In this document: positions 1-40,739 of the stretch, piece after piece
How positions within the stretch are numbered: the stretch's first letter is position 1
How the letters are laid out: each line of letters begins with the position of its first letter
From: a virus
DNA: 40,739 nucleotides
IMG/VR virus record: IMGVR_UViG_3300031673_000174
Span: 1-40,739 of that record
Direction: 5' to 3' (one strand)
The notes under the pieces: model-generated
Database searches by the model: none
What the model saw: only the letters and a program-made list of their open reading frames with translations
What the model was told of the DNA's origin: nothing
Translations under genes and position numbers: made by a program

Positions 1-127
1 CGTCCGCGACCTTGTGAAAATCGGCGGCCCCCTTGTCCGCCCCCTGGACATCGACTCGTGCGGTAAGATGCTGCTCGCCCGCCATACCGCTCTCCTATGC
101 CGCCGCGAATACGAGGAGGCGGTCGCC
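1..127. repeat. 127-bp exact direct repeat of 2775-2901
   Basis: Bases 1-127 are identical to 2775-2901, and identity stops abruptly at base 128 (a here, g at 2902). On the minus strand the repeat holds the last codons of the tail-tube gene, the short spacer, and the start codon and first codons of the tape-measure gene. The copy begins exactly at the first base of the window. Its length equals a common maximum assembly k-mer, so an assembly-graph overlap is a likely explanation. That last point is inference. Confidence 0.97.
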
Positions 128-631
128 AGAAGTTGCGGCACGGAACTGCTCGACCTCGAATAACTGACCGGCCCCCTCGACGTGCTCGGTCCAGGTCTGG
201 AGCCCGTTCGCGAACTGTTGGAACTTCGCCCGCTTGCCGGCGACGAACAGGTCAATGCCTTCGGCCTCCTCCGGCGGTGGCCTCTTCGCTTTAGCCGATT
301 CAGCCTTCGGACGCCATTTGTGGGGGGTGAGTTTTCGAGGGCGGCTTCCGACCGCTTCAAGGCCTACGGCTGACAGCAACCGACTCGGGTGATAGCTCTT
401 GGCGATGTACTCAGGATGCAACGTCATGACGGCAACTGCGTATTCGCGTGGGCACGCCGCCGCCGGCAGTTCCGCAATTGCGACCGCCGCTTGTCGAACC
501 TGCGGCGTGAGTCGCTCCTTGGCCTCTGCGAACGTGTAGGGCGGCCTGGATGTGCTTCCGCCACGCGGAAGTTCAACCGGCTTGGTAAGGTTCTCGCCGT
601 TGCCGAGCAGAAAGTTCGTCGTCTTCGCCAT
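95..631 (-). pseudogene. Truncated S8 (subtilisin-like) peptidase, N-terminal region only
   Basis: The frame encodes 178 residues. The first 167 or so (MAKTTNFLLGNGENL at the start; PPYTFAEAKERL and CPREYAVAVMTLHPEYIAKS further in) match my recollection of the N-terminal region of bacterial S8 peptidases encoded just downstream of an AAA ATPase. The subtilase catalytic domain with its Asp/His/Ser triad is missing. At base 127/128 the frame runs in phase into the last codons of the phage tail-tube gene (SGDRLLVFAAA), so the last 11 residues are borrowed. The start lies 18 bp after the AAA gene stop, consistent with a two-gene operon. The family call is from memory of the motif, not a search. 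Confidence 0.6.
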
Positions 632-649
632 CGTTCACACTCCTACAAC

Positions 650-1765
650 TCAAGGACGAGAGCGGGCTGTGGCCTTTCGAATCGTGTCCCGGCTCACTCC
701 GGTCAGGTCGTGAATCTGCCGCTGCGAGAGACCGAGCTTCGTTAGCGTCGAAGCGACAGCACCCCGCTCTGAGCGGGGCAGGCCGCCGATGCGACGCCTG
801 ACCAAGTCGTGCAAGGACTCTTCGAGGGAGTGCCCGCGAATGACCGCGTTACGTCTCATCGCGGTGAGTTCACGCTCGATGTCGCTAAACGACAAACCCT
901 GAAGAAGAGAAGCCAGCGTGCCATTCCATTCCGTGGGAAGCGAACCGTTCGGCCCCCAATATGCCGCTATCGTCTTTCCAACCGCCTCGCTATCCGGCAT
1001 CGGAAATTCAATCTTCATCTCGAATCGTCGCCAGACCGCTTGGTCGAGCAGGTCCGGGTGATTCGTTGCTGCGACCAGCAACCCCGTGGCAGGCCAGTCG
1101 TCTATCTCCTGCAACAGCACGGTTACTAGTCGCTTGAGTTCGCCGACTTCAAGGATGTCGTCGCGTCGCTTAGCGACGGCGTCCAACTCATCCAGCAAGA
1201 GAATGCAATCGACGCTCTTGGCGTAGTCGAGAACGTACCGCAGGTTGGTTCCGGTACGCCCCAGAAAGCTGCTCATCACAGCCGAGAGGTCCAGCACAAC
1301 AAGCGGTTGCTCCAGCCGCCACGCCAGCCAGCGAGCGGCGAGCGATTTGCCGACTCCAGGCGGGCCGGTGAAGATTACGGTTCGCGTTGGGGCCAAGCTG
1401 GCCTCGGCAAGTTCGTCTTGTCGTTGACGTTCCTGAACCAGTTGCTCTAATCCGCTTCGGACGCTCGCCAACCAAACCGGCTCGATATCGAGGGCCGAGA
1501 CGTGGTCAAGGCGAACCAAGTGCAGTCGCGAGTCGAGGTCAACGGGGATGGGTGCCACGCTGTCGCGGCGGAGGGGCGATTCCCTGGTGGGAGCCTCGCG
1601 GAGCAATTCCGACAGGCCCTTGGCAACGTCGGGAATCGAGCCGCGATAGCGTTTCGCGAGGCGTCGGACGAGCATTTGCACGTCCTGCGGACGCCCGGCT
1701 AAGGCGAGCCGGGCGAGGTGGACTAAATCTGAGCTTGAAATCGCTTGTTTGTCCGCTTGGGCCAT
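650..1765 (-). CDS. AAA-family ATPase, partner of the S8 peptidase
   Basis: This 371-residue protein has Walker A GPPGVGKS at about 134-141, Walker B LLLDELD at 189-195, a sensor-1 Asn in AATNHPD near 233-238 and an arginine-finger region WRRF at 245-248. It therefore looks like an active AAA+ ATPase. The C-terminal 30 residues (LGLSQRQIHDLTGVSRDTIR) form a helix-turn-helix, suggesting DNA binding or autoregulation. The N-terminal 120 residues are unrecognised. A GAGGAAAG ribosome site precedes the ATG. Such ATPase/subtilase pairs occur across bacterial genomes and have been proposed as conflict or stress modules; substrate and trigger are unknown. The gene is bacterial-type cargo, outside the phage gene order. 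Confidence 0.85.
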   Translation of the reverse strand: MAQADKQAISSSDLVHLARLALAGRPQDVQMLVRRLAKRYRGSIPDVAKGLSELLREAPTRESPLRRDSVAPIPVDLDSRLHLVRLDHVSALDIEPVWLASVRSGLEQLVQERQRQDELAEASLAPTRTVIFTGPPGVGKSLAARWLAWRLEQPLVVLDLSAVMSSFLGRTGTNLRYVLDYAKSVDCILLLDELDAVAKRRDDILEVGELKRLVTVLLQEIDDWPATGLLVAATNHPDLLDQAVWRRFEMKIEFPMPDSEAVGKTIAAYWGPNGSLPTEWNGTLASLLQGLSFSDIERELTAMRRNAVIRGHSLEESLHDLVRRRIGGLPRSERGAVASTLTKLGLSQRQIHDLTGVSRDTIRKATARSRP

Positions 1766-1796
1766 TTTTCGCTTTCCTCATCCACTAGACAGCGTA

Positions 1797-1846
1797 CCAC
1801 CTGGTGGACTAATATGCAATGCCTATCGTCAAAGTAGTCCACCTGG
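1797..1846. promoter_or_regulatory. Operator-like inverted repeats between divergent genes
   Basis: The 125-bp gap between the divergent AAA and DUF2188 genes contains CCACCTGGTGG (1797-1807, an odd-length palindrome). It also has GGTGGACTA (1803-1811) with its exact inverted copy TAGTCCACC (1835-1843), and a direct repeat of CCACCTGG at 1797-1804 and 1839-1846. The placement suggests a regulator-binding site for the ATPase/peptidase operon, possibly bound by the ATPase's own C-terminal HTH. Function is inferred from position and symmetry only. Confidence 0.5.
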
Positions 1847-1890
1847 CTTGAGCCGACGGTCGGCTGGCCGGGGGGACAAGGAGAAAACGC

Positions 1891-2124
1891 ATGCCAGGAA
1901 AAAACGTCCACGTGGTGAAGCATGATGACGGCTGGGCCGTCAAGAAGGAAGGAAACGAGCGGGCGTCGTCCGTTCACGGAACGCAGCAACAGGCCATTGA
2001 CGCCGGCCGCGACGCGGCGAAGTCGGAGCGGTCGGAGCTCGTTATTCACGGTCGCGACGGGAAGATTCGCGACAAGGACAGCTTCGGAAACGACCCCTTC
2101 CCGCCCCGCGACACGAAGCACTAG
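1891..2124 (+). CDS. DUF2188-family small protein
   Basis: This 77-residue protein (N-terminus MPGKNVHVVKHDDGWAVKKE) has the pattern of DUF2188: a V-x-H/P-x-x-x-GWAV-K-EG strand pair, then Q-x-x-AI-x-x-(A/G)R-x-x-A, then an ELVIHGRDGKIRDKDSFG segment. AAGGAG lies 7-8 bases before the ATG. It is the only convincing plus-strand gene in the window and is divergent from the AAA gene. The family is widespread in bacteria and of unknown biochemical function. The phage tape-measure fragment resumes within about 20 bases of its stop codon, so the gene marks the edge of the foreign segment. Confidence 0.8.
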   Translation: MPGKNVHVVKHDDGWAVKKEGNERASSVHGTQQQAIDAGRDAAKSERSELVIHGRDGKIRDKDSFGNDPFPPRDTKH

Positions 2125-2859
2125 CCGGCGTTCGCTCACAGTCACCGGGGCCGGCTCCACGGTTTCACCGGCCCGTGACATTTCCTCGATCTCGCGCTGC
2201 GTCCACCTTCCAACCCCCGCAACTACATTGCTGATAGCCTCATCGCGTAGGTGCGCCGGCAAGATGTCGCGCAGGACCGTCAAGAGTTCCCGCGCCGTCG
2301 CCACTTCCTCCGATGTAAACCATTTCTCCCTTCGTGTGCCCGACAGCTCATAAGCCTGTTGAACCATCTCATTTAGCTGTTCGGCTTGCTCAGTGTAGTA
2401 ATCTAGCGTTCGTTTCTGCTGTTCCTCCAATTTGGCATGGGCCTCGCGGAGGCCATTGATCGCGCTAGTGAGCGCCATCACCCCCGCGTAGGCGATCCCG
2501 CCCGCCCCCAACAAGCCGAGCACCCCACTGTATTTCGAGATGCCCGATGCTAGAGCGGAGAAGGTGCCCTTGAGGCTTATATTCTTGGTAGCCAGATCGC
2601 CCGCGATCTTCGCGCCCTTTTCCATAGACGCAATGAACGCACCCAGCATCGGATTGACGCGAGAGCCTAATTCCGCGTAGTCGCCGACCGCCGCCGTTGC
2701 TTTGGTCTGAGCGGTAGTGAACTCGTCAAGAGGTGGAGCAGCTTCGGTTATCTTTTGGGTGAACCGATCCTGGGCGTCCGCGACCTTGTGAAAATCGGCG
2801 GCCCCCTTGTCCGCCCCCTGGACATCGACTCGTGCGGTAAGATGCTGCTCGCCCGCCAT
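2125..2859 (-). pseudogene. Second tape-measure allele, 3'-truncated
   Basis: The start ATG at 2859 follows the tail-tube stop by 9 bp. The first 70 or so residues match the tape-measure protein at the right end of the window. The sequences then diverge steadily (ATKNISLKGTFSALASGI here, ATKQMTLRGTFSALASGI there) and share only scattered residues further on, such as AGETVEPAP versus AGETIDIAG. Phage-like coding ends near 2125-2145, where the frame runs backwards through the plus-strand DUF2188 gene. The long open frame continuing to 1723 is therefore read-through, not protein. About 240 residues are genuine; the intact allele is about 430. Confidence 0.75.
2693..2811. repeat. 119-bp exact repeat of 40611-40729
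   Basis: Identity to 40611-40729 is complete over 119 bp. It is bounded by single differences at 2692/40610 and 2812/40730, after which another nine bases match to the end of the window. The 2812/40730 difference is synonymous (GCG versus GCT alanine codon in the tape-measure frame), as expected for two natural alleles. This is the natural place to close the map into a circle of about 37.9 kb. Confidence 0.95.
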
Positions 2860-2901
2860 ACCGCTCTCCTATGCCGCCGCGAATACGAGGAGGCGGTCGC
2901 C
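2775..2901. repeat. Second copy of the 127-bp repeat (tail tube / tape measure junction)
   Basis: Exact copy of bases 1-127, here in its natural context: the intact tail-tube gene on its right and tape-measure sequence on its left. It overlaps the 119-bp repeat shared with the right end of the window. Confidence 0.95.
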
Positions 2902-3831
2902 GGAATCCCCGGTCAGGACGTTGGTGGTGGTCCCATCGTCATCGACGTATGCACACGTCCCTGTCGCCGCTACCTGCGTGTACGGGTGCTGCATATCCCG
3001 GCCACCCTCCCGCCAGTTGATGTTCTTGACCGTCAGAGTCTGAGCGGCTTGCGTTCCAACGCCCTCCAGAGTCACGATCAGGGACTTGAGCGGATTCGCC
3101 AGCATGTAGGCCAGGATATCGGCGTCGGTGGCGGCATACTCTTTGGCGTACCGCAGAGTGGCAGCGACCGACAACTGCCAGCCAGAGATATCCACCGCCG
3201 AAAGCGCCACGTCACCGTCACCGTAGTCTTGCCGGACGATGGCGTTGGCATTCACCGTGAAGTCCATCGCGTGATACACGTCGATGCTGTTGTAGGTCAC
3301 GGCAGTTGGCTTCCACAGCGATGCCGCCAGAACCAACGCCGGGACACTACCCGCCGCGATACCTCCCTCCGTCTTCAGAAGATCAGCGAAAGTATCGCTG
3401 TCATTTACCGCGCGACAGATTGCTTGGATCGTGCCCTGCGCGTAATTGCCCCGCGAGAATGCCATGCTCAGCGAAATCGGCACGGGATACATCAGGGACG
3501 CCTTTGACCACGTGGCCGCCCCTGATTCTCGACCGTACCAAACCCAGTCCCGGTTCGCCTCCAAGCCTGGACCTAGGAGTACCTTGGGGATCAGTTTCAG
3601 GATGTCGCGCGTGATCAGGGTGGCCCGCACGATCTGCCCAGCTTGATCGACCGCCGCCGGACCGCCAGCCCCGACCATGCCATCCTCTTCCGAGTCGATC
3701 TGATCGACGAAGCCCCGCGAGACTGTGATCCGCGAATTGCCCGCCAGCGTTGCGGTGTTCGCATCCGCCCCGCTCCAGCACGCGCAGTGCACTACTTCGT
3801 CGAACACCCGTTTGTTTACGATAGCAGCCAT
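2869..3831 (-). CDS. Probable tail tube (major tail) protein
   Basis: This 320-residue protein starts MAAIVNKRVFDEVVHCACW. I chose this ATG because it overlaps the upstream stop as TGATG; an upstream in-frame extension would run through the neighbouring gene. It lies directly before the tape-measure gene and after the head-tail connector genes, the usual position of a tail tube or major tail protein. The sequence alternates beta-rich stretches (AMDFTVNANAIVRQDYGDGD, QTLTVKNINW), compatible with a tube fold. I recognise no specific family. No frameshifted chaperone gene lies between it and the tape measure. Confidence 0.55.
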   Translation of the reverse strand: MAAIVNKRVFDEVVHCACWSGADANTATLAGNSRITVSRGFVDQIDSEEDGMVGAGGPAAVDQAGQIVRATLITRDILKLIPKVLLGPGLEANRDWVWYGRESGAATWSKASLMYPVPISLSMAFSRGNYAQGTIQAICRAVNDSDTFADLLKTEGGIAAGSVPALVLAASLWKPTAVTYNSIDVYHAMDFTVNANAIVRQDYGDGDVALSAVDISGWQLSVAATLRYAKEYAATDADILAYMLANPLKSLIVTLEGVGTQAAQTLTVKNINWREGGRDMQHPYTQVAATGTCAYVDDDGTTTNVLTGDSGDRLLVFAAA

Positions 3832-9528: not shown

Positions 9529-10308
9529 CTAGGCTGATACCTTCTTGGCTGCATCCTCAAACCTATCGGCAATCAGCCGGGCGAGCTCCGCCTTGACCCC
9601 CGTCATCATAAACTGCGACATCCGATCCACGTCGACAGGGTAAGCGAATTCGGGGTCCAGTTGCGTTTCTACGGCCTTACCCTTACCGTCTGATCTTACC
9701 ACCGCACCCGCCATATTCAAGGTGTACAAGGGTGCGCTCATACGCTTGAACGTCCCAGCAGTCAGTGCGGTCACGGTGCATCTACAGTTCCAGCCATTTA
9801 GCGGCGTCCAGAACAGCCAGAAGCGATCCGTCGCTAGAAATACTTTACCGTGTAGTGCGGCGTGCTCAGGCCGTACCCCGTTGATCCCCGGCTTGCCGTT
9901 CCCGACCGTCATGTACTGCCAGTAGGGCAGCCCCTTCAGTACCGCCGGGTCGCGGAGTACCCGATCACGAGCTACCGATGCCGCCCCGAGCATGTTCTGC
10001 CTGAGCACCACGCGGAGGTGCCAACCAGCCAGCGGCTTGACTCCCGCCGCCCGGAACGCCGTGTTGATGCGATTCCGGATAGCCTCGTTGCCCAGCCCGT
10101 CCCGCAGCCCCCGCGTTATGATCCGCTGGGCCTTCTCAATCAGCGTGATTTTCGATACCCCGGCCATGCGGAAGGCCCGCGCCTTGGCTTCTCTCTTGAG
10201 TTGGTCGAACGCTGCCGAGGTCAAGGGCGTCTTGGTGCGCAGGAGTGCCCCCGCCGCCTCCATGCGCTTCGGTAAGAAATCCGCAGGTTGAAGATCGCTT
10301 ACGGGCAT
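9529..10308 (-). CDS. Minor head protein (Mu gpF / SPP1 gp7-like)
   Basis: 259 residues. The diagnostic C-terminal block is clear: LPYWQYMTVGNGKPGINGVR, then RPEHAALHGKVF, FWLFWTPLNGWNCRCTVTAL. This is the gpF/SPP1 gp7 minor head family, including the conserved Cys pair in GWNCRC. Such proteins are injected or line the portal and take part in head assembly and DNA ejection. The N-terminal 100 residues are basic and helical. It follows the portal region and precedes the protease, as in Mu. Confidence 0.85.
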   Translation of the reverse strand: MPVSDLQPADFLPKRMEAAGALLRTKTPLTSAAFDQLKREAKARAFRMAGVSKITLIEKAQRIITRGLRDGLGNEAIRNRINTAFRAAGVKPLAGWHLRVVLRQNMLGAASVARDRVLRDPAVLKGLPYWQYMTVGNGKPGINGVRPEHAALHGKVFLATDRFWLFWTPLNGWNCRCTVTALTAGTFKRMSAPLYTLNMAGAVVRSDGKGKAVETQLDPEFAYPVDVDRMSQFMMTGVKAELARLIADRFEDAAKKVSA

Positions 10309-10322
10309 AGTGCACCGCCGCG

Positions 10323-10742
10323 TTAGTTAGCCGTGAGCGCCAGCGCCGTTGCTTTGATCGAAAGCTGGAACGTGGTCGCCCCCGTTGCCCAACCGAGCAA
10401 CGTCACGTAGTCGCTGGTCGTCAGATCAGCATGGGGCTCAGCCGCGCCCGGCGTAGTGCTGAGGAACAGCAAATCCCCGATGTTCGTGAATGCCGCCGCC
10501 TGAACAGTTATCACCCCGGACGCCGTGTAATTGATCGGCTGACCCGCCGCAGTCGCCGAATTCAAGGCGATACCGACCACGGCGGCTTTCGCCTCTGTGC
10601 TGTTGTCCGCCAGCTTCGCCTTATTCGAGTCCGTTGAATCCTTATAGATGAATTCCCCTGCGTCGATCGCCTCCCCTGCCACCAATGCGTTGCCGACGCC
10701 CGTAGCCATGACCGCTGTCGCTGTAAACGAATACGCTGCCAT
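10323..10742 (-). CDS. Small head decoration-like protein (DUF2190-like)
   Basis: 139 residues, Ala/Thr-rich and beta-like, with GEAIDAGEFIYKDSTDSNKA and VVGIALNSATAAGQPINYTA followed by GVITVQAAAF. This is the pattern of short phage capsid-stabilising or decoration proteins whose strands repeat around a trimeric axis. It is encoded between the Zn-ribbon protein and the minor head protein, earlier than usual for a decoration protein, which normally lies by the capsid gene. The family assignment is by pattern only. Confidence 0.6.
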   Translation of the reverse strand: MAAYSFTATAVMATGVGNALVAGEAIDAGEFIYKDSTDSNKAKLADNSTEAKAAVVGIALNSATAAGQPINYTASGVITVQAAAFTNIGDLLFLSTTPGAAEPHADLTTSDYVTLLGWATGATTFQLSIKATALALTAN

Positions 10743-10743
10743 A

Positions 10744-11064
10744 TCAAGCCCTTTCAGTTGAATTGCCTAAGTCTGCCGCCACGCCGCCTTCGCCTCCATT
10801 CGCCGACGCCTTTCTTAGTCGATACGCTTCTTGAATCCGTCTCTGCCGTTCCGCCCGGCACTTCGATTGACCACAGTAAATCGGCCTACCGTGGCCCCAG
10901 ACTTGGAACTCGATCCCACACGCCTTGCAGACTACCCGCCGGTCGCCCCGTGGGTTCTCCAGGTGCAACTCGTCCGCTTCCGGGTCACGTCCCGGCGGGT
11001 CTTCGAAGTCCACGCTCCGGTAGGTGTTTGGGTTCGGAGTCGTATCTAATTCGTCGTCGATCAT
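10744..11064 (-). CDS. Small protein with one zinc ribbon
   Basis: 106 residues: an acidic N-terminus (MIDDELDTTPNPNTYRSVDF), a treble-clef-like zinc site VCKACGIEF ... IYCGQSKC (four Cys at about 47, 50, 64 and 69) and a basic helix CRAERQRRIQEAYRLRK. It probably binds nucleic acid, but I can name no family. It is the first gene after the repeat-rich gap at 11065-11338, so it may be the first gene of the unit transcribed from there. Confidence 0.6.
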   Translation of the reverse strand: MIDDELDTTPNPNTYRSVDFEDPPGRDPEADELHLENPRGDRRVVCKACGIEFQVWGHGRPIYCGQSKCRAERQRRIQEAYRLRKASANGGEGGVAADLGNSTERA

Positions 11065-11081
11065 CCTTCAACCCCGGCGAT

Positions 11082-11110
11082 TACTACTAGATATAACACT
11101 CATAGTAGTA
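11082..11110. repeat. Inverted repeat TACTACTA / TAGTAGTA
   Basis: An exact 8-bp inverted repeat (11082-11089 and 11103-11110) with a 13-nt A+T-rich spacer lies 18 bp upstream of the zinc-ribbon gene start at 11064. It stands out in otherwise GC-rich DNA. It may be an operator or the core of a promoter for that gene. No run of T follows, so it is not an obvious terminator. Confidence 0.55.
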
Positions 11111-11117
11111 GTATGCC

Positions 11118-11346
11118 CTGTGAAATTGTGATATCTTGGCTTCCGAAAATCATAAGTGCTGTGTCAGCATAGGCTTATGATTTCGGACCCTGTTACTTTC
11201 CTGTGATATCTTCTGTGATATCTTGGGGGTTTACTCACAGGGGCGCGCCCGCAACTGGGACGCCTGTGAGTAACTTGCGGTTTACTCACAGAATTACTCA
11301 CAGGCAAAGCTCGGATATCACAGGTAACTCACAGGTTGTCACAGGC
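11118..11346. repeat. Cluster of TGTGA/TCACA motifs (iteron- or operator-like)
   Basis: About a dozen TGTGA or TCACA cores occur between 11118 and 11430. They include a perfect tandem of CTGTGATATCTT (11201-11212, 11213-11224), TTACTCACAG at 11231, 11282 and 11294, its exact inverse CTGTGAGTAA at 11264-11273, and GATATCACAG at 11314. TGTGA forms dominate the left part and TCACA forms the right part. The segment is largely non-coding. Possible roles are a replication origin with initiator sites, an array for a late-gene regulator, or a packaging site; the sequence does not decide. Confidence 0.8.
11142..11187. other. Long nested hairpin (cruciform-like)
   Basis: The arm at 11142-11156 (TCCGAAAATCATAAG) pairs with 11174-11187 (CTTATGATTTCGGA) with one bulged A. 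Immediately inside, TGCTG (11157-11161) pairs with CAGCA (11165-11169) around a TGT loop, leaving a 4-nt bulge. It lies inside the TGTGA repeat cluster. There is no T-run on either side, so it is not a classical terminator; a protein-binding or replication structure is more likely. Confidence 0.75.
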
Positions 11347-11446
11347 ATCCCGCCGTCACTAGGAGTGAAGCCATCACGCCGATCCAGACCACCCACACGA
11401 GTACCGGAGCCGCCGCCGCCCACTCACATTGTCGTTTGCTGCTCAT
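11339..11446 (-). CDS. 35-residue single-pass membrane peptide
   Basis: A small frame from ATG 11446: MSSKRQCEWAAAAPVLVW at the start, then a hydrophobic span to the end (WIGVMASLLVTAGC). The basic N-terminus followed by about 22 hydrophobic residues is a plausible transmembrane segment. The start overlaps the 3' end of the upstream gene in another frame, suggesting translational coupling. Its stop codon is part of a TGTGA repeat. A GGAGGA lies rather far (about 13 bases) upstream. It could be a holin-like or membrane-anchoring peptide; conservation has not been tested. Confidence 0.4.
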   Translation of the reverse strand: MSSKRQCEWAAAAPVLVWVVWIGVMASLLVTAGCL

Positions 11447-11777
11447 CGTTCAATAAGTCCTCCATCGTTAAGTCCTCCGCCTCCGGGATCACTGCCGGGG
11501 TAGCTGCTACTGCCGCCACCGCCATGCCCTGCATCAGGGCGCTCGCCACCGCCTGTTCAAAGCGCTTGCCGTCAGGACGTAGCTCCATCGCCGCGAAAGC
11601 GTCAGGCAGCTTGGCGAGCATTTCCTCCGGGCTCACATCCGCGTGTTGCTCGATCCAGTCGAGGAGGGGGGTCACCGCCGCCGCGTCAAATACCGCCTCC
11701 ATCTTGTCCGCACAGCGGTCGGCCAGCCGGACAAGTTCCTGTTGTGCCTGCTTGTGGCTGTGGATCGTATCCGCCAT
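11424..11777 (-). CDS. Detached C-terminal region of the DUF935 portal, or small head protein
   Basis: 117 residues, helical: ELVRLADRCADKMEAVFDAA, LLDWIEQHADVSPEEMLAKL, FEQAVASALMQGMAVAAVAA. This pattern (WIE/PLL helix, then a SPEEMLAKLPDAF helix, then an Ala-rich membrane-like helix) is what I expect at the C-terminus of DUF935 (Mu gp29) portals. The upstream portal gene ends early, after a Pro/Ala-rich linker. The 8-bp gap between them suggests the portal has been split into two polypeptides. Alternatively it is an independent head protein. Confidence 0.55.
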   Translation of the reverse strand: MADTIHSHKQAQQELVRLADRCADKMEAVFDAAAVTPLLDWIEQHADVSPEEMLAKLPDAFAAMELRPDGKRFEQAVASALMQGMAVAAVAATPAVIPEAEDLTMEDLLNDEQQTTM

Positions 11778-11785
11778 GTTAGGGT

Positions 11786-13120
11786 TTACCCAAACGCCCC
11801 GCCCATACCCGGCATAGCTGCCGGAGCGGGCACCGGCAAGTCCGCCACGTCCAGCACGGCTTCGCCCGGCTCCGGCTTCGGAAGCCCTACCAACTCGTAA
11901 ATCTGATCCCGCGCCACCGGTAAGCCGAGACGGGCAATCACGCCTTCCAGGGTCCGCAAGTTCCGTTCGGTGTCCGTCTCCTCGCGGAACGTCCGCACGA
12001 AGCGCGGAATGGGCACGCTCTTGCGGGGGAACTCGAAAGCGATCATCGGGGCGAAAAGCTGGCGCTCAATGGTATCCGCCTCCGCCCGTACATCATCTTC
12101 CGTAATCGCCCGCCGCACCCGGTCGTGGATTGAAGCCGCCGCGTATGTGCCCGTCCCGCCGCTGGTATCTGTAGTTAGAGTCTGACCGAGGTATCCGATC
12201 GACTGCTTGCGCTCGATCCAGTCGATGAATTCCTTATACGGATGTGCCGTGCGATTAGCCTCCAGGAAATTCAAGTTGACGGCTTCGGAGACCACCGCGT
12301 AACCGTCGGACCCGAGTGAAGCCAAGGCAGTCTTAATATCATTTTTCTCCTGTGGCGTGGCGTTCGGTCCATGTTTCCCTACGCGGATGGGCATCCCGTA
12401 GACCTCAGCAAAAGTTGCCCAGTCGGCAATCGCCCCCGCTTTGATCAAGTACAGCTTCGCCTGTGCCCGTGTCAGGCAGGAGAGGAACGGCCAATACCCC
12501 GCGCCTTCCGGTCGGTGGATAATGAACTTCCCCGGCGCGGCTATGATACCGGTCCCCATATCCTCCATTGTGAGCACGCGGATATCCGGGCTTTGCGAGT
12601 AGTCGATGTTCAGCCGATGGGCGGGGATGCTTAAAAACCGCACGGGTCGCGTCCCCTCCCAGACGATTTCCGCCACCGCCAGATTCGGGCCGATCGCTTT
12701 GGCTAGATGACGGCATAGGCTTGGCAGTTCGGGGTTGCGATCGAAACACCCCGTCACGTATTCCGCTGCCGCCGCCGCCAGGCCCGCATCTTGATCCGCG
12801 TGCGTGTCGCCGGGCTCGATCGTCCAGTCCATACCAGTCAAGGCCATGCGCCGGGTAGCCGCGACCGCCTGGAGGTGCAAGTCCTTGGATTCGATCTCCT
12901 CCGACAGCCGGACCATATCCGCCGCGTTGCCCGTATCGGCACCCTGGAGTAGCGTAGCGAGCCCTGTGAATGTCAGGGCGTCCGTCACGTAATCCAGGCT
13001 GCTATCAAGCCCCTGTGACCACTGGAAGATCGCCCCGGGGAAGGGATGCTCACCGTATTCCCAGCCACCCGGATATGGGCTGGGCTGAATCTTGCCGCGT
13101 AACCATGCTGGGTATCCCAT
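11786..13120 (-). CDS. Portal protein (DUF935, Mu gp29-like)
   Basis: 444 residues. DUF935 signatures: IESKDLHLQAVAATRRMALT and GMDWTIEP near residues 90-120, GMPIRVGKHGPNATPQEKND in the middle, then IGYLGQTLTTDTSGGTGTYA and DDVRAEADTIERQLFAPMI. It forms the DNA-translocating dodecamer at the head vertex. It starts 1 bp after the large-terminase stop. The chain ends in a Pro/Ala/Met-rich tail (PVPAPAAMPGMGGAFG), and the expected C-terminal helical region appears to be the next gene (11424-11777). Confidence 0.9.
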   Translation of the reverse strand: MGYPAWLRGKIQPSPYPGGWEYGEHPFPGAIFQWSQGLDSSLDYVTDALTFTGLATLLQGADTGNAADMVRLSEEIESKDLHLQAVAATRRMALTGMDWTIEPGDTHADQDAGLAAAAAEYVTGCFDRNPELPSLCRHLAKAIGPNLAVAEIVWEGTRPVRFLSIPAHRLNIDYSQSPDIRVLTMEDMGTGIIAAPGKFIIHRPEGAGYWPFLSCLTRAQAKLYLIKAGAIADWATFAEVYGMPIRVGKHGPNATPQEKNDIKTALASLGSDGYAVVSEAVNLNFLEANRTAHPYKEFIDWIERKQSIGYLGQTLTTDTSGGTGTYAAASIHDRVRRAITEDDVRAEADTIERQLFAPMIAFEFPRKSVPIPRFVRTFREETDTERNLRTLEGVIARLGLPVARDQIYELVGLPKPEPGEAVLDVADLPVPAPAAMPGMGGAFG

Positions 13121-13121
13121 A

Positions 13122-14450
13122 TCACATTCCTCTCAGTCCAGACGATCGGAGAGGCGGTCCGCGCGTAACCTCGACTGGACCCGCGTAACCAGCCGCCGCC
13201 GCCTCCAACGCCAACGCCGCCGCAATGGCCCGGTCGCTGTGACCGTCGGCGGTGAACGGCGCGGCATACGTCACCACGCCACCCGTCGATACCACCCGTT
13301 TCAGGCCATAGAAGTCCATCGCCACATCGTCCCCATCCGGCAAACTAATTGTATGCGTTTGGACGGCCTTTTGCAGCCGTTGTACAAGGCTCAGCTTTCG
13401 GGCTGGCGTAAAAACCACCGGCAGGATGGCCCCGCGAGGCGATTCCCCGAACCGCCCGACCGCATCCTCCGCTGTCTGGGGGTTGTATGTCGCGTCGATG
13501 GCGATGCACGCCACCGCCGGGGTCTTGCCGAGCACATTAATCGCCGCCGCCTGATCGCGGAAGGATACCCCCCGCATTTCGACGATGCCTACCGTCTCGT
13601 AACCCGCGATCTCTCCCGCTCCCGCCCGAATGATCCAGATCACCGTCAAGCTCTGTGTCCGCCCGATGTCGATACCCGCGAAGAGCGGACCCGCCTGATT
13701 CAGCAATACCGCCAGATCAAGACTTCGTGGTATCCCCGCCCGTTGACAGGCCAGGATGTCCGCCCACGCCATGACCGCCGTGGTATCTTCGACTGCCCAT
13801 CCATCAACGTATTGATTCGCTAGGTCCGGGCCGTACTCCGCTCGCATCAGTGCCGCCTGCGCCCGCATTCCCGGGTTGTCAGTCGTCGCCCCCCGGAAGA
13901 TAGCAAAGCCGGGCCGAGCTTGCTTTTCCCACCGCAACCATAGCCAGGACGCCTTACCTTCGTGAGTCCCGGTGACCATGATCTGCCGCAGGTGCGATGC
14001 CACGCGGGGATCGCGGGTCCGGGCCAGGGCGTTGAACCACAAGTTCCGAAGTGGGCTGGCGTGCTCAGGGATGCGGGCGGGTTCGTCGATCCAGGTGCGT
14101 CCGACTTCAAAGCCGGTGATTCGCTCCGGTGCAGTGCCGCTGTATATTAGGATTCGGTTATCGGTGGCGGGTGTGCTGATTTCCATCGGGTTCAGCCGCA
14201 CCTCAAACGGGATTTCAGCCGCTCGCAGGTGTTCAACCAAGGCCGGGATCGCCACCTGGGACGCCAGGGAGTACGTGGGCTCGATGACAAGCGAATCGAC
14301 TCCGGGTACGTGTACATGGTGAGCAAGTAGCTTCGCCGCCCCGCCCCAGGTCTTCCCGCCGCCCTGACCCATGATAAGGGCTGGAAATCGCGCCGCCGAC
14401 CGCAAGAAGTCAGCCTGAGCACCGGGGTTCGGATGAAGTTCAAGGGGCAT
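13122..14450 (-). CDS. Terminase large subunit
   Basis: 442 residues with both terminase activities visible. The ATPase has Walker A GQGGGKT at 28-34 and Walker B RTWIDEPARI near 118-127. The RNase H-like nuclease has acidic residues in FAGIDIGRTQ (Asp261), CIAIDATYNP (Asp319) and a late HSDRAIAAALA block near 410. It packages DNA into the prohead through the portal. It overlaps the small-terminase-like gene by 11 bp. A terminase rather than a DDE transposase is the packaging and DNA-mobility enzyme here. Confidence 0.92.
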   Translation of the reverse strand: MPLELHPNPGAQADFLRSAARFPALIMGQGGGKTWGGAAKLLAHHVHVPGVDSLVIEPTYSLASQVAIPALVEHLRAAEIPFEVRLNPMEISTPATDNRILIYSGTAPERITGFEVGRTWIDEPARIPEHASPLRNLWFNALARTRDPRVASHLRQIMVTGTHEGKASWLWLRWEKQARPGFAIFRGATTDNPGMRAQAALMRAEYGPDLANQYVDGWAVEDTTAVMAWADILACQRAGIPRSLDLAVLLNQAGPLFAGIDIGRTQSLTVIWIIRAGAGEIAGYETVGIVEMRGVSFRDQAAAINVLGKTPAVACIAIDATYNPQTAEDAVGRFGESPRGAILPVVFTPARKLSLVQRLQKAVQTHTISLPDGDDVAMDFYGLKRVVSTGGVVTYAAPFTADGHSDRAIAAALALEAAAAGYAGPVEVTRGPPLRSSGLRGM

Positions 14451-18978: not shown

Positions 18979-19881
18979 TCAAGCCGTAACCTTGGCGAAC
19001 GGTAGCATTTCATCATCGACCTTATCGCGCTGGCTTATCGCGTCGTCCAGATTGCTTATTGCCGCCGCGTAGTATTCGTCCTTGATCTCGCAACCGTAAA
19101 ACCGTCGCCCCAATTTCAGCGCCTCGTAACCTTCAGAACCAATCCCGGCAAAGGGCGAAAAGACGATCTCGCCCGGCAAGGAATACAGGGTAATCAAACG
19201 ACGAATCACCTTAAGCTGCAAGGGGCATATATGCTTCGTGTCATTTTCGCCTCGTCCGGCAACCACATTCAGGGTGTCCGTCTCCCTGATTTCGTGCCAC
19301 GTCCATACGCCCTCGGCCCATGCAATCCAGTCATTACGGCTAACTTCCGAGCTGCGGATTGGGACGGCATTCTCACCGGCACCCCGGAATTTGATCAAGT
19401 AATCATTCAGGGCGGGTCGACTCTTGGCGCGGTCACTGTCCAAACCCGAAAACTGCAACTCTCGGCTTTTCGTTCTGATTGCTTGCGATTGCGGGTTCTT
19501 GGTCACCGGAATATCAGTCTCGTAAATCAATCCGGCACGCTCACCCAAGCGGATATTCAGTCCCCGGAAGTCGTGCAAGCCGTATTCTCCACTCCTTTTC
19601 ATTCGGGGTATCTGGGCGACGTGGACCATCGCCACTCTACCGGGTTTCAGCACGCGGCCTAATCCACGGTAAAACCAACTCAGGTGTAATGTTGTCTCCG
19701 TTTTGAACTCCTCACTGTTTCCGATGTCTTCAGCAAGAGACGTATAAGCATACAAGCTCGGGAACGGCGGCGAAAACACGGCCATATCCACGGAGTGCAT
19801 TGGCATCGCTTCCCACATATGAGGGATGCAATCCCCCTTGTGGAGCTTATATTCCGCTTCGCCCGTCAAAGGCGTATTCAT
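18979..19881 (-). CDS. DNA methyltransferase, predicted N4-cytosine type
   Basis: 300 residues. The catalytic motif IV is MAVFSPPFPSLYAY (SPPF at 37-40) and precedes the SAM-binding motif I FSPFAGIGSEG (241-251). This is the permuted beta-class order. SPPF favours N4-cytosine over N6-adenine methylation, but this is not certain from motif alone. It overlaps the SNF2-like helicase gene by 35 bp. No restriction endonuclease is adjacent, so self-protection of phage DNA or a role in the helicase system is more likely than a restriction-modification pair. Confidence 0.85.
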   Translation of the reverse strand: MNTPLTGEAEYKLHKGDCIPHMWEAMPMHSVDMAVFSPPFPSLYAYTSLAEDIGNSEEFKTETTLHLSWFYRGLGRVLKPGRVAMVHVAQIPRMKRSGEYGLHDFRGLNIRLGERAGLIYETDIPVTKNPQSQAIRTKSRELQFSGLDSDRAKSRPALNDYLIKFRGAGENAVPIRSSEVSRNDWIAWAEGVWTWHEIRETDTLNVVAGRGENDTKHICPLQLKVIRRLITLYSLPGEIVFSPFAGIGSEGYEALKLGRRFYGCEIKDEYYAAAISNLDDAISQRDKVDDEMLPFAKVTA

Positions 19882-21343
19882 TGAAAAGCCTCTCCTGCTC
19901 CTCTCCGTCCTCTTGGACTCGGTGCGCTTTCCTCAACACGGTATCTATCATAGGCTGCTCGGCGTCGGTGATCGGAATATGCACATTCAGCGGCCTAAGT
20001 GATCCGATACGGTTGGACCGTTTGACGGCCTGATAGAACTGCTCATAGGAATCCTGTAGGCCGCTGAATACTTGCCTTGTAGCAATTTGCAAGTTCAGCC
20101 CGAAGCCTAGTATCTTCGGCTTGGTTATCAATACTCGTTTTGCCCCGGCCTTGAAGTCGCTTATTAGCCGCATCCGCTCGGCGTGGGGAGTATCCCCAGA
20201 GATGTTTGCCGCCGCGGGGAATGTCTGCCGCATTAGCTTTTGTTCCTCGTTGTAGATGCACCAGATGATCGTCGATTCCCCCGGCCATGATTCGATCAGC
20301 TTGCGTATAAATGCGGGCTTGTTGGTTGCAATGCTCTGCCCGTTGTGTCTGCCTTTGGCTATCTGCCCGATCTTTGATCGTGTACCTATTCCACCAACGG
20401 CAGTCACGATAAGCTCGCCCGTCAACTCCTGAATTGCGATATGCTGTGCATCCGTAGTTGGCACATTTTCTATGTGAATGTGTATGGGCGGTATGTCGTC
20501 TGAATGGTCCCGCCAGCCGTACGTCTTCGGGTTCGTCAAGAATATACACCAATGCGACAAGCCCCGATAGAATGGTCCGATGGCATGCGGTTTCAACACC
20601 CATCGTTCTGACGTTTGCCCCTTATTGACAAAGAACTTAGCCAAGAACGCATTGATGTTGGGGTAAGCACCCATGAGTATGGCGTGGTTTGCATATTCGA
20701 TCCGGTCGTTTGGAGCTGGCGTGCCAGTGCCGCACATCTTCCACTGCAAACCGCGCCCAAGCCGCAGAATCGTTTGGCCCCATTTCCCGTAGTGCGACTT
20801 CAGCATAGACGATTCGTCCACGATCAACGCCCCTAGTCGCCCCGTTGGGATATCATTATTCAGGGCTTCATAATTCGTGATACCTAATCGCCCGCCCTCG
20901 ATCAGCCACTGTCCCAGATCCTTCGATGCTATTTGTTCGGGTCTGAAATCTTCACCGTACCATCGGGCAAACTCGGCTTGGGTTTGCTCAATAACCATCA
21001 AGGGGCTGATGATAAGTATCGCTTTATCGGCGGCCAACAGCTTGTCGATGTGTCGAATAAATTCCGCATAGATGAGCGTTTTCCCTAAACCACAATCAGC
21101 GAAGATGCTGAATCGCCGCTTCTTGATTGCCAATCCAGCAATGTCCCGCTGGTAATCAAATAGGAATGGCGACGGCTCGTAACTGGCATCGGGTTCTAGG
21201 CTTGGCGCATCTACTTGTAGCAAGTGGGCGTATTCGTCCGGTACTATCGCCGTCCGGCCAATGAACCGATATTGTGGCAGTTGCTTAATGGCCAGAAATC
21301 GGCGATAATCATCTAATGATTGCGATGATAGCGTATACTCCAT
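19847..21343 (-). CDS. SNF2-like DEAD/H-box helicase
   Basis: 498 residues. FADCGLGKTLIYAEFI (Walker A, 83-89), LIISPLMVIEQTQ, ITNYEALN, LIVDESSMLK (motif II DESS) and MCGTGTPAPN (motif III) make up the first RecA domain. IWCIYNEEQKL, ISGDTPHAERMRLISDFKAG, ILGFGLNLQIATRQVF and YQAVKRSNRIGS (motif VI) make up the second. The ITNYE and RSNRIG forms are those of SNF2-type translocases. Coupled by overlap to the methyltransferase. Phage genomes often carry this helicase for replication or recombination. Confidence 0.88.
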   Translation of the reverse strand: MEYTLSSQSLDDYRRFLAIKQLPQYRFIGRTAIVPDEYAHLLQVDAPSLEPDASYEPSPFLFDYQRDIAGLAIKKRRFSIFADCGLGKTLIYAEFIRHIDKLLAADKAILIISPLMVIEQTQAEFARWYGEDFRPEQIASKDLGQWLIEGGRLGITNYEALNNDIPTGRLGALIVDESSMLKSHYGKWGQTILRLGRGLQWKMCGTGTPAPNDRIEYANHAILMGAYPNINAFLAKFFVNKGQTSERWVLKPHAIGPFYRGLSHWCIFLTNPKTYGWRDHSDDIPPIHIHIENVPTTDAQHIAIQELTGELIVTAVGGIGTRSKIGQIAKGRHNGQSIATNKPAFIRKLIESWPGESTIIWCIYNEEQKLMRQTFPAAANISGDTPHAERMRLISDFKAGAKRVLITKPKILGFGLNLQIATRQVFSGLQDSYEQFYQAVKRSNRIGSLRPLNVHIPITDAEQPMIDTVLRKAHRVQEDGEEQERLFNEYAFDGRSGI

Positions 21344-21566: not shown

Positions 21567-22247
21567 TCATGCTTCTCGCAGCAACCGTCCACCTACATCA
21601 ATTCGCCAACCCGCAGGCGCATCCCTTGATAGACATGCGCCTGAAAGGTTCGCCCCGCTGAGGTTCGCCCCGCTGAGGTTCGCCCCGCTGAGGTACGCCC
21701 CGGTGAGGTACGCCCTGCTGAGGTCTGCCCCGCTGAGGTTTGCCCCGCTGAGGTTCGCCCCGCCGAGGTCTGCCCCGCTGAGGTTCGCCCCGCCGAGGTT
21801 CGCCCCGCTGAGGTACGCCCCGCTGAGGTACGCCCCGCTGAGGTCTGCCCCGCTGAGGTTTGCCCAGCCGATATCGGCGTCTTTCGATAACGAGCGCATG
21901 GTTGCGGCCAGGAATGCGCGTAAGCGTGGGTAGGCGCACAACAGAGGATAATCGCGGGTCACTTCTATGAGCAATCTGGCGCGCCGAACGGCTATTTTCT
22001 CCGAGTTATCACTACAACATCCAACATCACTATCAGTTTCCGCCAGAAATAAACGTGCTTTCGGCCTCCACCAGCGCAGCGGGTCACTAACAAGATGCAG
22101 GCCGGTTTGGCAGATTACAGGTGCAACTCCGCAATCATACCATTCGCCGGGCTGGTCATCGTATGGTAGGGGCCACTGCCCATTCCCGCCGTGTATAGAT
22201 TCACCGTTAGGCCCGAGCACTTTGAACAACTGTAAAGATATTGTCAT
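21567..22247 (-). CDS. Pentapeptide-repeat protein with N-terminal domain
   Basis: 226 residues from ATG 22247, whose ribosome site lies in the diverged cassette copy. Residues 1-125 form a compact Trp/Gly-rich domain ([53 protein letters not shown]). Residues of about 130-210 are 16 tandem A(N/D/Y)LSG pentapeptides, which fold as a right-handed quadrilateral beta-helix. Some pentapeptide proteins (Qnr, MfpA) mimic DNA and bind gyrase; most have no known role. The phage might use it on gyrase or on host nucleases, but nothing here shows this. Confidence 0.85.
21631..21873 (-). repeat. Tandem 15-bp repeat encoding the pentapeptides
   Basis: About 16 near-identical 15-mers of the form cgccccgctgaggtn (plus-strand reading), with substitutions mostly confined to the third base triplet that changes Asn, Asp and Tyr. 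The DNA-level regularity implies recent expansion. Copy number here is prone to both slippage and assembly error. Confidence 0.9.
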
Positions 22248-22271
22248 CGTCTCACTCCTGATCCCACCACC
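22245..22271 (-). repeat. Translation-start cassette, diverged copy 3
   Basis: Matches 18774-18800 except for two substitutions (a T-to-C in the stop triplet region and a T-to-C in the Asn/Asp codon). Here the KWWNQE-type ending is real: it is the RWWDQE C-terminus of the dockerin-like lipoprotein. This copy may therefore be the source of the others. Confidence 0.75.
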
Positions 22272-22797
22272 GCACAATCCACGCCACGCCGCTACCTAAC
22301 CCCATCCACGTGCAACAACCGTTCGCATCAAGCTCGCAGACAAGCTCCGACTGAATCACACCGTCATAGCTGAAGAGAAACGCCCACCCGGTGCACGGCT
22401 CGCGGGGAGGGCCGCAATGCGTGAAACATACGCTGATTATCCCTAGCGGACTCGCACGCCAGAACCACGCTTGTAACGCTGCGAAGTCCCATAGGTCCAC
22501 GTCGCCGTCGTTGTCGAGATCGAACTTCATACAGTCGTCGGTGCGGAAACCCATGTCCGGCCCGGACAGACATTCACAAAAGTTCATTGGCTCCTGAGAG
22601 AGATCACACGCCAGGGCGCGAGCGAGGAAATGCTCGGCATCATTCATCGGCTTCTCAGGCAATGGGTAGCCTTTGACGACCGGGCATGGCAAGCCTGTCG
22701 GCGTCACGTACCGAGCTACTGTGGTCACCGGGCAAGGTGGGCACAGGCGCCGGCAGCCAGTGAGTACAATCAATGATATGTACATATATCTACTCAC
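22252..22797 (-). CDS. Dockerin-like lipoprotein of planctomycete type
   Basis: 181 residues if the GTG at 22797 is used; an ATG at 22785 is better spaced from GGGGAG. A short hydrophobic leader ends in LIVLTGC, a lipobox with Cys15. Residues 74-110 hold [16 protein letters not shown] and the calcium loop [13 protein letters not shown] followed by AALQAW, a motif set common in planctomycete secreted proteins. The last part is beta-rich with [13 protein letters not shown]. Function unknown; a surface-exposed phage lipoprotein could act in superinfection exclusion. Strongest pointer to the host. Confidence 0.75.
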
Positions 22798-38985: not shown

Positions 38986-39485
38986 TACTCAAGCACCTCA
39001 AAGCTCATTCGGAACTGCTGCCATACCGGATAGCTGCCGATCCCCGTGGTTGCCCGCCGCCCGATCCGCTCGTAAGCCCGCAGGACGACCCGCAGGCCGA
39101 TAATCCGCGTAGAGGTCCACGACAACCGCGTTGGCTGTGCTTTCGCCATCGTGGCCGGTGTGCGGAGCCGCTCGCCGGTTATCGGGTTGTGCCACGTGCC
39201 GTAAACGTAGGTCTCGATCTCCGCCTCGATGGTATCCAGCCGGGTCGCCAAGTCCGCCCGGATAACCCCTTCGATAATGACCAGCCGTCGCTGGAAACCC
39301 ATGATCTCTTTGAACGTCTGATCGGATTCCGGCAGGGTGATATCGCTGGTCGCTACCTGGAGGGGCTGCTGGGTCAGCCGGTTTGTCGAATGGGCTTGGC
39401 TGGCGGTATGGTAAATCCCCGTCGCCTGTCCCCAGTCCAGGATGGCCACGCTGTTGTAACCGCCGAACTCCGGGTAGGCTGCCAT
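38985..39485 (-). CDS. Probable distal tail / tail-completion protein
   Basis: 166 residues. MAAYPEFGGYNSVAILDWGQ, then ESDQTFKEIMGFQRRLVIIE, GVIRADLATRLDTIEAEIET and LSWTSTRIIGLRVVLRAYER. The mixture of a beta core with one long helix, and the place between tape measure and hub, suits a distal tail or adaptor protein. It overlaps both neighbours by one base. The family call is context-based. Confidence 0.55.
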   Translation of the reverse strand: MAAYPEFGGYNSVAILDWGQATGIYHTASQAHSTNRLTQQPLQVATSDITLPESDQTFKEIMGFQRRLVIIEGVIRADLATRLDTIEAEIETYVYGTWHNPITGERLRTPATMAKAQPTRLSWTSTRIIGLRVVLRAYERIGRRATTGIGSYPVWQQFRMSFEVLE

Positions 39486-40739
39486 CAGTTACGCCCCCCC
39501 GAGCGGACGCGCTCGTTGCCGGTCTTTGCGTGGACAGTGGCGTTATACTGCTTGTTCTCGGCAATGTTGACATTGAGCGTCACATCACTTGGCCCCATAT
39601 GCCCGGTGCGACGTAACAGCATTTCTAATGCCTGCATCTGGGCCGAGCTAAAGCCCCATTCCTGCGCTTGTGGACCACCGATAAGACTCCATAGTTCAAG
39701 CCCCAAGCCGACTCCAGTCTCTCGACGTGCCTCCTCAAATAGCTGTTCCTGCGGTGTCCGCCCGGCTAGACGTGCCCTGGCATCAATTGTGATTGCGCGA
39801 TACTGTGCGTCTTGTTCGTATTTCGCGAGCTTCCGCTTATAAGTCTCAGCGGTTTCTAATACTTCTTTTCGATCCTCTTCACTTAAACCCCATATCCCTT
39901 CCTTTAGGAATTGCTCGGCTTCGGGGCCGCTGATATCCTCCCGCATACGTTGCCGCCGCATTTCCTTGTCGGCTTCCGCTCGGCGCTCTTCTTCTTCTTC
40001 CGCCCGTTCAAGCCGCTCGCGGCGGTGGCGCCGCTCGAAATCCCGCGCCCGCTTTTCCTGGCTTCCAGCGATATCAATCGTTTCGCCAGCGGCGGTTACT
40101 CGCCTCATTTCTTCCCGAGTAACGAGCCCGATACCCGCGACGATGTTCTGCCGCAATTCGTCTTGCAGGTCCGCAGCGAATCGGGGAGCTTCCATGCGAT
40201 ACATCTCTCGCGCTTGGGTTTCCTCTTCCGCCGTAAACCCCTTTTCTTTACGTAGCCGCGACAGTTCTCGCATTTGCGTCACGGCTTCATCTTCCAGTTT
40301 CACCTCTTCGGCTTGGGCGTCTTTGCGGCGTTGCTCCTCCTCCCTGAGCTTCGCTACCGCTTCCCGGTGCTGATTGATCGCCCACGTAAGCGCTATTACG
40401 CCGCCATAAGCCAGTCCGCCCGCGCCGAGCAACCCGAGCACGCCGCTATACTTTTCGATACCCGATGCCAGCGCAGAGAACGTGCCCCTCAGCGTCATCT
40501 GCTTAGTGGCCAGGTCGCCCGCGATCTTGGCGCCCTTCTCCATTGACGCGATGAACGCCCCGAGCATGGGGTTAACGCGGCTGCCCAGCTCCGCATAGTC
40601 CCCGACCGCAGCCGTTGCTTTGGTCTGAGCGGTAGTGAACTCGTCAAGAGGTGGAGCAGCTTCGGTTATCTTTTGGGTGAACCGATCCTGGGCGTCCGCG
40701 ACCTTGTGAAAATCGGCGGCCCCCTTGTCAGCCCCCTGG
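39485..40739 (-). CDS. Tape-measure protein, allele A (5' end beyond the window edge)
   Basis: The frame is open to the last base of the window; joined through the shared repeat to the start codon at 2859 it would be about 430 residues. A hydrophobic segment (KYSGVLGLLGAGGLAYGGVI) near residue 110 is followed by a long charged coiled coil (RREAVAKL..., ERAEEEEERRAEADKEMRRQ), then a C-terminal QLFEEARRETGVGLGLELWS. This is the usual tape-measure layout, but short, predicting a tail of roughly 60-70 nm if 0.15 nm per residue holds. Differs from allele B (2125-2859) after the first 70 residues. Confidence 0.75.
   Translation of the reverse strand, partial: QGADKGAADFHKVADAQDRFTQKITEAAPPLDEFTTAQTKATAAVGDYAELGSRVNPMLGAFIASMEKGAKIAGDLATKQMTLRGTFSALASGIEKYSGVLGLLGAGGLAYGGVIALTWAINQHREAVAKLREEEQRRKDAQAEEVKLEDEAVTQMRELSRLRKEKGFTAEEETQAREMYRMEAPRFAADLQDELRQNIVAGIGLVTREEMRRVTAAGETIDIAGSQEKRARDFERRHRRERLERAEEEEERRAEADKEMRRQRMREDISGPEAEQFLKEGIWGLSEEDRKEVLETAETYKRKLAKYEQDAQYRAITIDARARLAGRTPQEQLFEEARRETGVGLGLELWSLIGGPQAQEWGFSSAQMQALEMLLRRTGHMGPSDVTLNVNIAENKQYNATVHAKTGNERVRSGGRN
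40611..40729. repeat. 119-bp exact repeat of 2693-2811
   Basis: The right-end copy of the tape-measure 5' segment. The final 48 bases of the window also overlap bases 1-48 with a single mismatch. The most economical reading is a circular or terminally redundant genome whose ends were not merged because two alleles differ by SNPs. Confidence 0.95.

What the first reader, a model, noticed from the sequence alone, without database searches (positions are those of the whole stretch)
1..2901. Insertion-with-duplication or chimera at the tape-measure gene
Seen: bases 1-127 equal 2775-2901 exactly; 128 to about 2124 is bacterial-type DNA (truncated S8 peptidase, AAA ATPase, DUF2188); from about 2130 the sequence is a diverged, truncated tape-measure allele. 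A 127-bp exact repeat starting at the very first base is what a k=127 assembly graph leaves at an unresolved branch. Either a minor molecule was joined into the phage contig, or a cargo module really sits in a duplicated tape-measure region. The latter would be a phage carrying a conflict module at a virion-gene hotspot.
Basis: partly seen in the sequence, partly recalled or inferred. Interest (0 to 1): 0.72.

Follow-up and report, generated by a model that had tools for sequence, protein, structure and literature searches.

The report
Chimeric bacterial loop at phage contig end
The first 2.8 kb of this phage contig is a side loop, most likely a chimera left by the assembly: a broken piece of a bacterial defence locus between two fragments of the phage's tail-length gene. 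The phage genome closes into a circle without it, so this is not a working gene cargo.

Summary
Bases 1-127 equal 2775-2901 exactly. Bases 128 to about 2150-2172 are contiguous bacterial DNA, 84% identical to a planctomycete chromosome (PLA3), carrying a DUF2188 gene, a whole ietA ATPase gene and only the first 168 of about 752 codons of ietS. From about 2173 to 2692 lies a diverged tape-measure (TMP) fragment. The phage therefore closes at about 37.9 kb without the loop, with an intact 431-aa TMP gene and the gene order of two distant relatives that have no cargo there. The longest exact match across that closure is 119 bp, so a k=127 graph could not make the join; a 127-bp repeat starting at base 1 fits the same k. 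At the left breakpoint the phage and PLA3 ietS share 11 nt (chance about 1e-6), which points to chimeric or illegitimately recombined molecules. The IetS protease domain is absent and the flanking TMP copy is truncated, so a functional conflict module is not supported. Reads were not available, so a rare real recombinant is not excluded.

The parts
1..127 (.). Repeat R, copy 1 (contig start): end of the tail-tube gene plus the first 28 codons of TMP
   Evidence: Exact copy of 2775-2901; length equals the top k of JGI metaSPAdes runs
117..127 (.). 11-nt microhomology AGGCGGTCGCC shared by phage R and the PLA3 ietS at the breakpoint
   Evidence: fraction of random position pairs with a run of 10 nt or more about 2e-6
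128..631 (-). 5' part of ietS (168 codons), cut off by the junction at 127/128; the ORF reads on into R and stops at 95
   Evidence: PADLOC IetS E 8e-5, PHROG 3964 E 3e-22; 87% aa identity to PLA3 ietS, which is 752 aa with its S8 domain at residues 303-550
650..1765 (-). ietA, AAA ATPase, intact, 371 aa
   Evidence: PADLOC IetA E 1.5e-79; Pfam AAA E 5.8e-27; 92% aa identity to PLA3, dN 0.05, dS 0.73
1891..2124 (+). DUF2188 gene, complete, 77 aa, divergent from ietA as in PLA3
   Evidence: Pfam PF09954 E 7.5e-27; 91% aa identity to PLA3
2125..2172 (.). Bacterial flank and right junction zone
   Evidence: PLA3 homology ends at 2149; a genome of the same family matches 2131-2172 at 90%; TMP homology begins near 2173
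2173..2692 (-). Diverged, truncated TMP fragment (allele 2)
   Evidence: 64% aa identity to TMP allele 1 over residues 56-223; substitutions mostly at third codon positions in residues 56-130
2693..2821 (-). Stretch repeated at the right end of the contig (start of TMP)
   Evidence: 128/129 identical to 40611-40739; the one mismatch, 2812/40730, is a synonymous Ala codon change
2775..2901 (.). Repeat R, copy 2 (the phage's own tube-TMP boundary)
2869..3831 (-). Tail-tube gene of the phage
   Evidence: Sub-threshold Pfam Phage_tube_2 match; 31% aa identity to the corresponding gene of IMGVR_UViG_3300038678_000258
39485..40739 (-). Main part of the intact TMP gene (allele 1), which continues across the contig ends into 2822-2859; 431 aa in all
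   Evidence: Single open frame when the ends are closed; N-terminal homology and gene order as in two relatives
40611..40739 (.). Right-end overlap that closes the phage genome at about 37.9 kb
   Evidence: longest exact run 119 bp, less than 127

Best explanation
The contig is a complete phage genome of about 37.9 kb (2822-40739) with an extra side loop (1-2774) attached at its start. The loop is not a working insertion. It comes from a minority of chimeric molecules in which a piece of a bacterial ietAS defence locus is joined on both sides to the phage's tube-TMP boundary region. The joins were probably made by annealing of short identical stretches, such as the 11 nt at the left junction, during DNA amplification or library making, or by rare illegitimate recombination in the cell. 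In a k=127 assembly graph this loop begins and ends at the same 127-base vertex. The assembler ran through it once before entering the phage, and could not make the proper closure because the two strain haplotypes share no exact 127-mer there. Shown: the repeat, the end overlap, the intact closed TMP, the bacterial origin, the truncations and the left microhomology. Inferred: that the molecules are rare, how they formed, and which assembler was used.
For: Exact 127-bp repeat starting at base 1; 127 is the top k of the standard JGI metaSPAdes command (PMC11256825), and G000 is a virus record of the IMG/VR kind. The right end overlaps 2693-2821 with one mismatch and a longest exact run of 119, below k. 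Closure gives a 431-aa TMP gene and the same tube-TMP-166-833 aa order as two relatives (315-462-161-839 and 304-469-163-826 aa), neither with cargo at that place and neither with a detected ietA (a search without a positive control). The insert is contiguous PLA3-like chromosome that breaks off inside ietS before the protease domain. The 11-nt overlap at the left junction lies within the 3-13 nt range of over 95% of the overlaps in amplification chimeras (PMC5372508). The TMP fragment changes abruptly from 0 differences to dS about 2, a further switch point in the same loop. GC skew at 1001-2000 is the only positive window of the contig.
Against: Two junctions between the same 2-kb bacterial piece and the same 0.75-kb phage region are unlikely for wholly independent chimeras, so a single real molecular lineage remains possible. 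The phage encodes a RecE-like exonuclease and a RecT-like annealing protein, of types shown to make mosaics at short or diverged homology (PMC3945230). No reads or coverage were available, and it is not known whether the DNA was amplified.
Confidence: 0.75

Rival explanations
1. A real but inert insertion-with-duplication. Part of the phage population carries a tandem duplication of about 0.73-0.75 kb (TMP start and tube end) with 2.0 kb of bacterial DNA between the copies. It was made by microhomology-mediated recombination, possibly with the phage's RecE/RecT proteins, and the full TMP gene is kept downstream.
For: Both junctions involve the same two loci; 11-nt microhomology; RecE- and RecT-like genes; an intact TMP would remain.
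Against: The contig's own right end reaches the tube-TMP boundary without the insert and with a different haplotype. The sequence to the left of copy 1 is not in the contig, so nothing shows phage DNA continuing beyond it. The repeat has exactly the length k.
Confidence: 0.18
2. A functional conflict (defence) cargo at a virion-gene hotspot.
For: ietA is intact and shows purifying selection; IetAS is known in other phages, for example filamentous phage PfAC08, and a similar ATPase gene followed by a 2.2-kb gene lies in Enterobacter phage phiT5282H.
Against: IetS is cut after 168 codons and lacks the S8 domain; the two relatives have no gene between tube and TMP; TMP allele 2 is truncated and its frame runs on into the antisense of DUF2188.
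Confidence: 0.02
3. A small circular molecule of about 2774 bp (R plus loop) separate from the phage, for instance an amplified chimera circle, joined to the phage only through the shared R.
For: In graph terms the loop starts and ends at the same vertex (inferred).
Against: No replication gene and no gene suggesting an element of its own among those annotated.
Confidence: 0.05

Closest known systems
IetAS anti-phage defence system (AAA ATPase IetA plus S8 peptidase IetS)
   Same: ietA followed by the start of ietS; closest relative is the planctomycete PLA3 locus (84% nt) with the divergent DUF2188 gene
   Different: ietS lacks about 580 codons including the whole protease domain
Amplification or template-switch chimeras in sequencing libraries
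   Same: Direct join of unrelated molecules at a short exact overlap (11 nt)
   Different: Two joins to the same bacterial locus; read support could not be checked
Phage mosaicism by Rad52-like (RecT / Red beta type) recombinases
   Same: The phage has RecE- and RecT-like genes; TMP alleles switch abruptly at 2692/2693
   Different: Mosaics in the cited study depend on the length and degree of homology between related regions; here unrelated bacterial DNA is joined at 11 nt and both genes at the joins are broken
Phage-borne IetAS (PfAC08)
   Same: The same gene pair carried by a phage genome
   Different: There both genes are complete and not inside a tail gene

Membership tests
IetAS defence system | IetA-type AAA ATPase | tested here: met
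   PADLOC IetA E 1.5e-79 over residues 13-368
IetAS defence system | IetS with S8 peptidase domain | tested here: not met
   Only 168 codons present; in PLA3 the S8 domain is at residues 303-550 of 752
IetAS defence system | Defence activity | not testable with these tools
   No assay
Phage cargo at a conserved hotspot | Accessory genes at the same place in relatives | tested here: not met
   Tube and TMP adjacent, TMP intact, in IMGVR_UViG_3300038678_000258 and IMGVR_UViG_3300029258_001351; only two relatives found
Phage cargo at a conserved hotspot | Virion genes left intact | tested here: inconclusive
   The flanking TMP allele is truncated, but an intact TMP exists across the contig ends
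k=127 assembly-graph artefact | Exact repeat of length k at a contig end | tested here: met
   127 bp from base 1
k=127 assembly-graph artefact | True closure not resolvable at that k | tested here: met
   Longest exact run between 40611-40739 and 2693-2821 is 119 bp
k=127 assembly-graph artefact | Drop in depth or clipped reads at the junctions | not testable with these tools
   No reads
Template-switch or amplification chimera | Short exact overlap at the junctions | tested here: inconclusive
   Met at the left junction: 11 nt, chance about 1e-6. At the right junction only an imperfect overlap of about 12 nt against proxies of both parents

The most novel reading that the evidence does not exclude
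A replicating phage subpopulation caught soon after picking up foreign bacterial DNA: a fragment of a defence locus captured at 11-nt homology into a tail gene, with a duplication that keeps the tape-measure gene working.
Probability: 0.15. Interest if true: 0.45.

Novelty: not a real feature. Interest (0 to 1): 0.12.

Why it matters
It warns that a defence gene reported on a phage contig can be a chimera at the contig end. The check used here, whether the other end of the contig closes the genome without the segment, needs no reads and could be applied to other records. If the insertion proved real it would be a direct view of gene capture by a phage at microhomology.

Tried and rejected
Searches for other viral contigs with the phage's TMP, tube gene, R sequence or TMP allele 2 found none; near records may be left out of that collection. 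Host inference by tetranucleotides was inconclusive: a first look at 11-kb loci suggested a non-planctomycete host, but larger PLA3 pieces removed that contrast. A prophage in the donor was considered: no match to the TMP allele-2/R stretch in PLA3 or PLA6 (an uncontrolled negative). A single prophage integrated next to ietAS does not explain phage DNA on both sides of the bacterial piece. A repeat element at 2131-2172 was tested: its core pattern occurs once in 27 genomes of the family. An assembler misjoin by end overlap alone was considered less likely, because both joins would need tips ending exactly at the shared bases. Planctomycete genomes were scanned for related terminases: only weak, partial matches, no help with the host.

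Full report
Observation. Bases 1-127 equal 2775-2901 exactly and the match ends there. A match of this length is not chance. In addition, the last 129 bases, 40611-40739, equal 2693-2821 except for one base, 40730 A against 2812 C, a synonymous third-position change in an alanine codon.

What the loop contains. On the minus strand, ietA (650-1765, 371 aa) matches PADLOC IetA at E 1.5e-79, and the ORF below it matches the N-terminus of IetS. A complete DUF2188 gene lies on the plus strand at 1891-2124. The closest sequences are planctomycete: PLA3 (CP054190) aligns over window 117-2149 without a break at 83.8%, and PLA6 over most of it. Amino-acid identity to PLA3 is 92% (ietA), 87% (ietS start) and 91% (DUF2188), with dN far below dS, so these were working genes in the donor lineage. 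PLA3 IetS has 752 residues with the S8 domain at 303-550; the window holds 168 codons. The 11-kb locus in PLA3 has 61% G+C against 66-69% in five other pieces of that chromosome, so it may itself be mobile, and the donor need not be the phage's host.

The junctions. At the left junction the phage and PLA3 share AGGCGGTCGCC, 11 nt ending exactly at base 127; among 3 million random phage-PLA3 position pairs a run of 10 or more was seen at a rate of 2e-6 and a run of 11 not at all. At the right junction, PLA3 homology stops at 2149, a genome of the same family matches 2131-2172 at 90%, and TMP homology begins near 2173 with an imperfect overlap of about 12 nt. The TMP fragment itself changes from no differences over residues 1-55 to dS about 2 over 56-130, which marks another switch, between two phage alleles.

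The phage without the loop. Closing the ends gives a single 431-aa TMP frame. Two relatives found through the terminase have, in order, tube 315 aa, TMP 462 aa, 161 aa, 839 aa (IMGVR_UViG_3300038678_000258) and tube 304, TMP 469, 163, 826 aa (IMGVR_UViG_3300029258_001351); the closed window has tube 320, TMP 431, 166, 833 aa. Neither relative has a gene between tube and TMP, and ietA was not detected in them. The phage genome is therefore complete without the loop.

Reading. A repeat of exactly 127 bp starting at base 1, and a true closure whose longest exact run is 119 bp, both fit a k=127 de Bruijn graph; the standard JGI metaSPAdes command uses k up to 127. In such a graph the loop is an edge from vertex R back to R. 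Because the overlap at the left breakpoint is only 11 nt, molecules containing that join most likely existed; a k=127 graph would not make the join from the shared bases alone. Overlaps of 3-13 nt are the rule in amplification chimeras (PMC5372508). Illegitimate recombination in the cell is also possible, since the phage has RecE- and RecT-like genes and such proteins recombine regions that share only short stretches of homology (PMC3945230). The sequence cannot separate these two origins; either way the product is broken at ietS and at the flanking TMP copy.

Comparison with the known. The gene pair is IetAS by profile and order, but the membership test fails on IetS, which has no protease domain here. 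IetAS on a phage is already known: filamentous phage PfAC08 carries both complete genes. So even the cargo reading would not be a new kind of system.

Limits. Only two informative relatives were found. The identification of the assembler is inferred from the repeat length.

Noticed in passing
window 21567-22277 (-): Pentapeptide-repeat protein gene (Pfam E 7e-31) with several near-identical direct DNA repeats around 21646-21865.
   Followed up: no
window 9529-14450 (-): Head module whose portal matches DUF935-type (Mu-like) portals, next to a terminase; no transposase turned up among the ORFs scanned, but not all ORFs were scanned.
   Followed up: partly
window 18979-21343 (-): SNF2-type helicase gene next to an N6/N4 DNA methyltransferase gene.
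   Followed up: no
L053 (PfAC08, OR818368): The record's notes call the ATPase IetS and the S8 peptidase IetA, the reverse of PADLOC usage.
   Followed up: no
L007 and L008: PLA3 and PLA6 ietS are nearly identical (dS 0.09) while their ietA genes are more diverged (dS 0.37), suggesting recombination inside the locus.
   Followed up: no
window 18773 and 21532: An exact 30-bp direct repeat about 2.8 kb apart.
   Followed up: no
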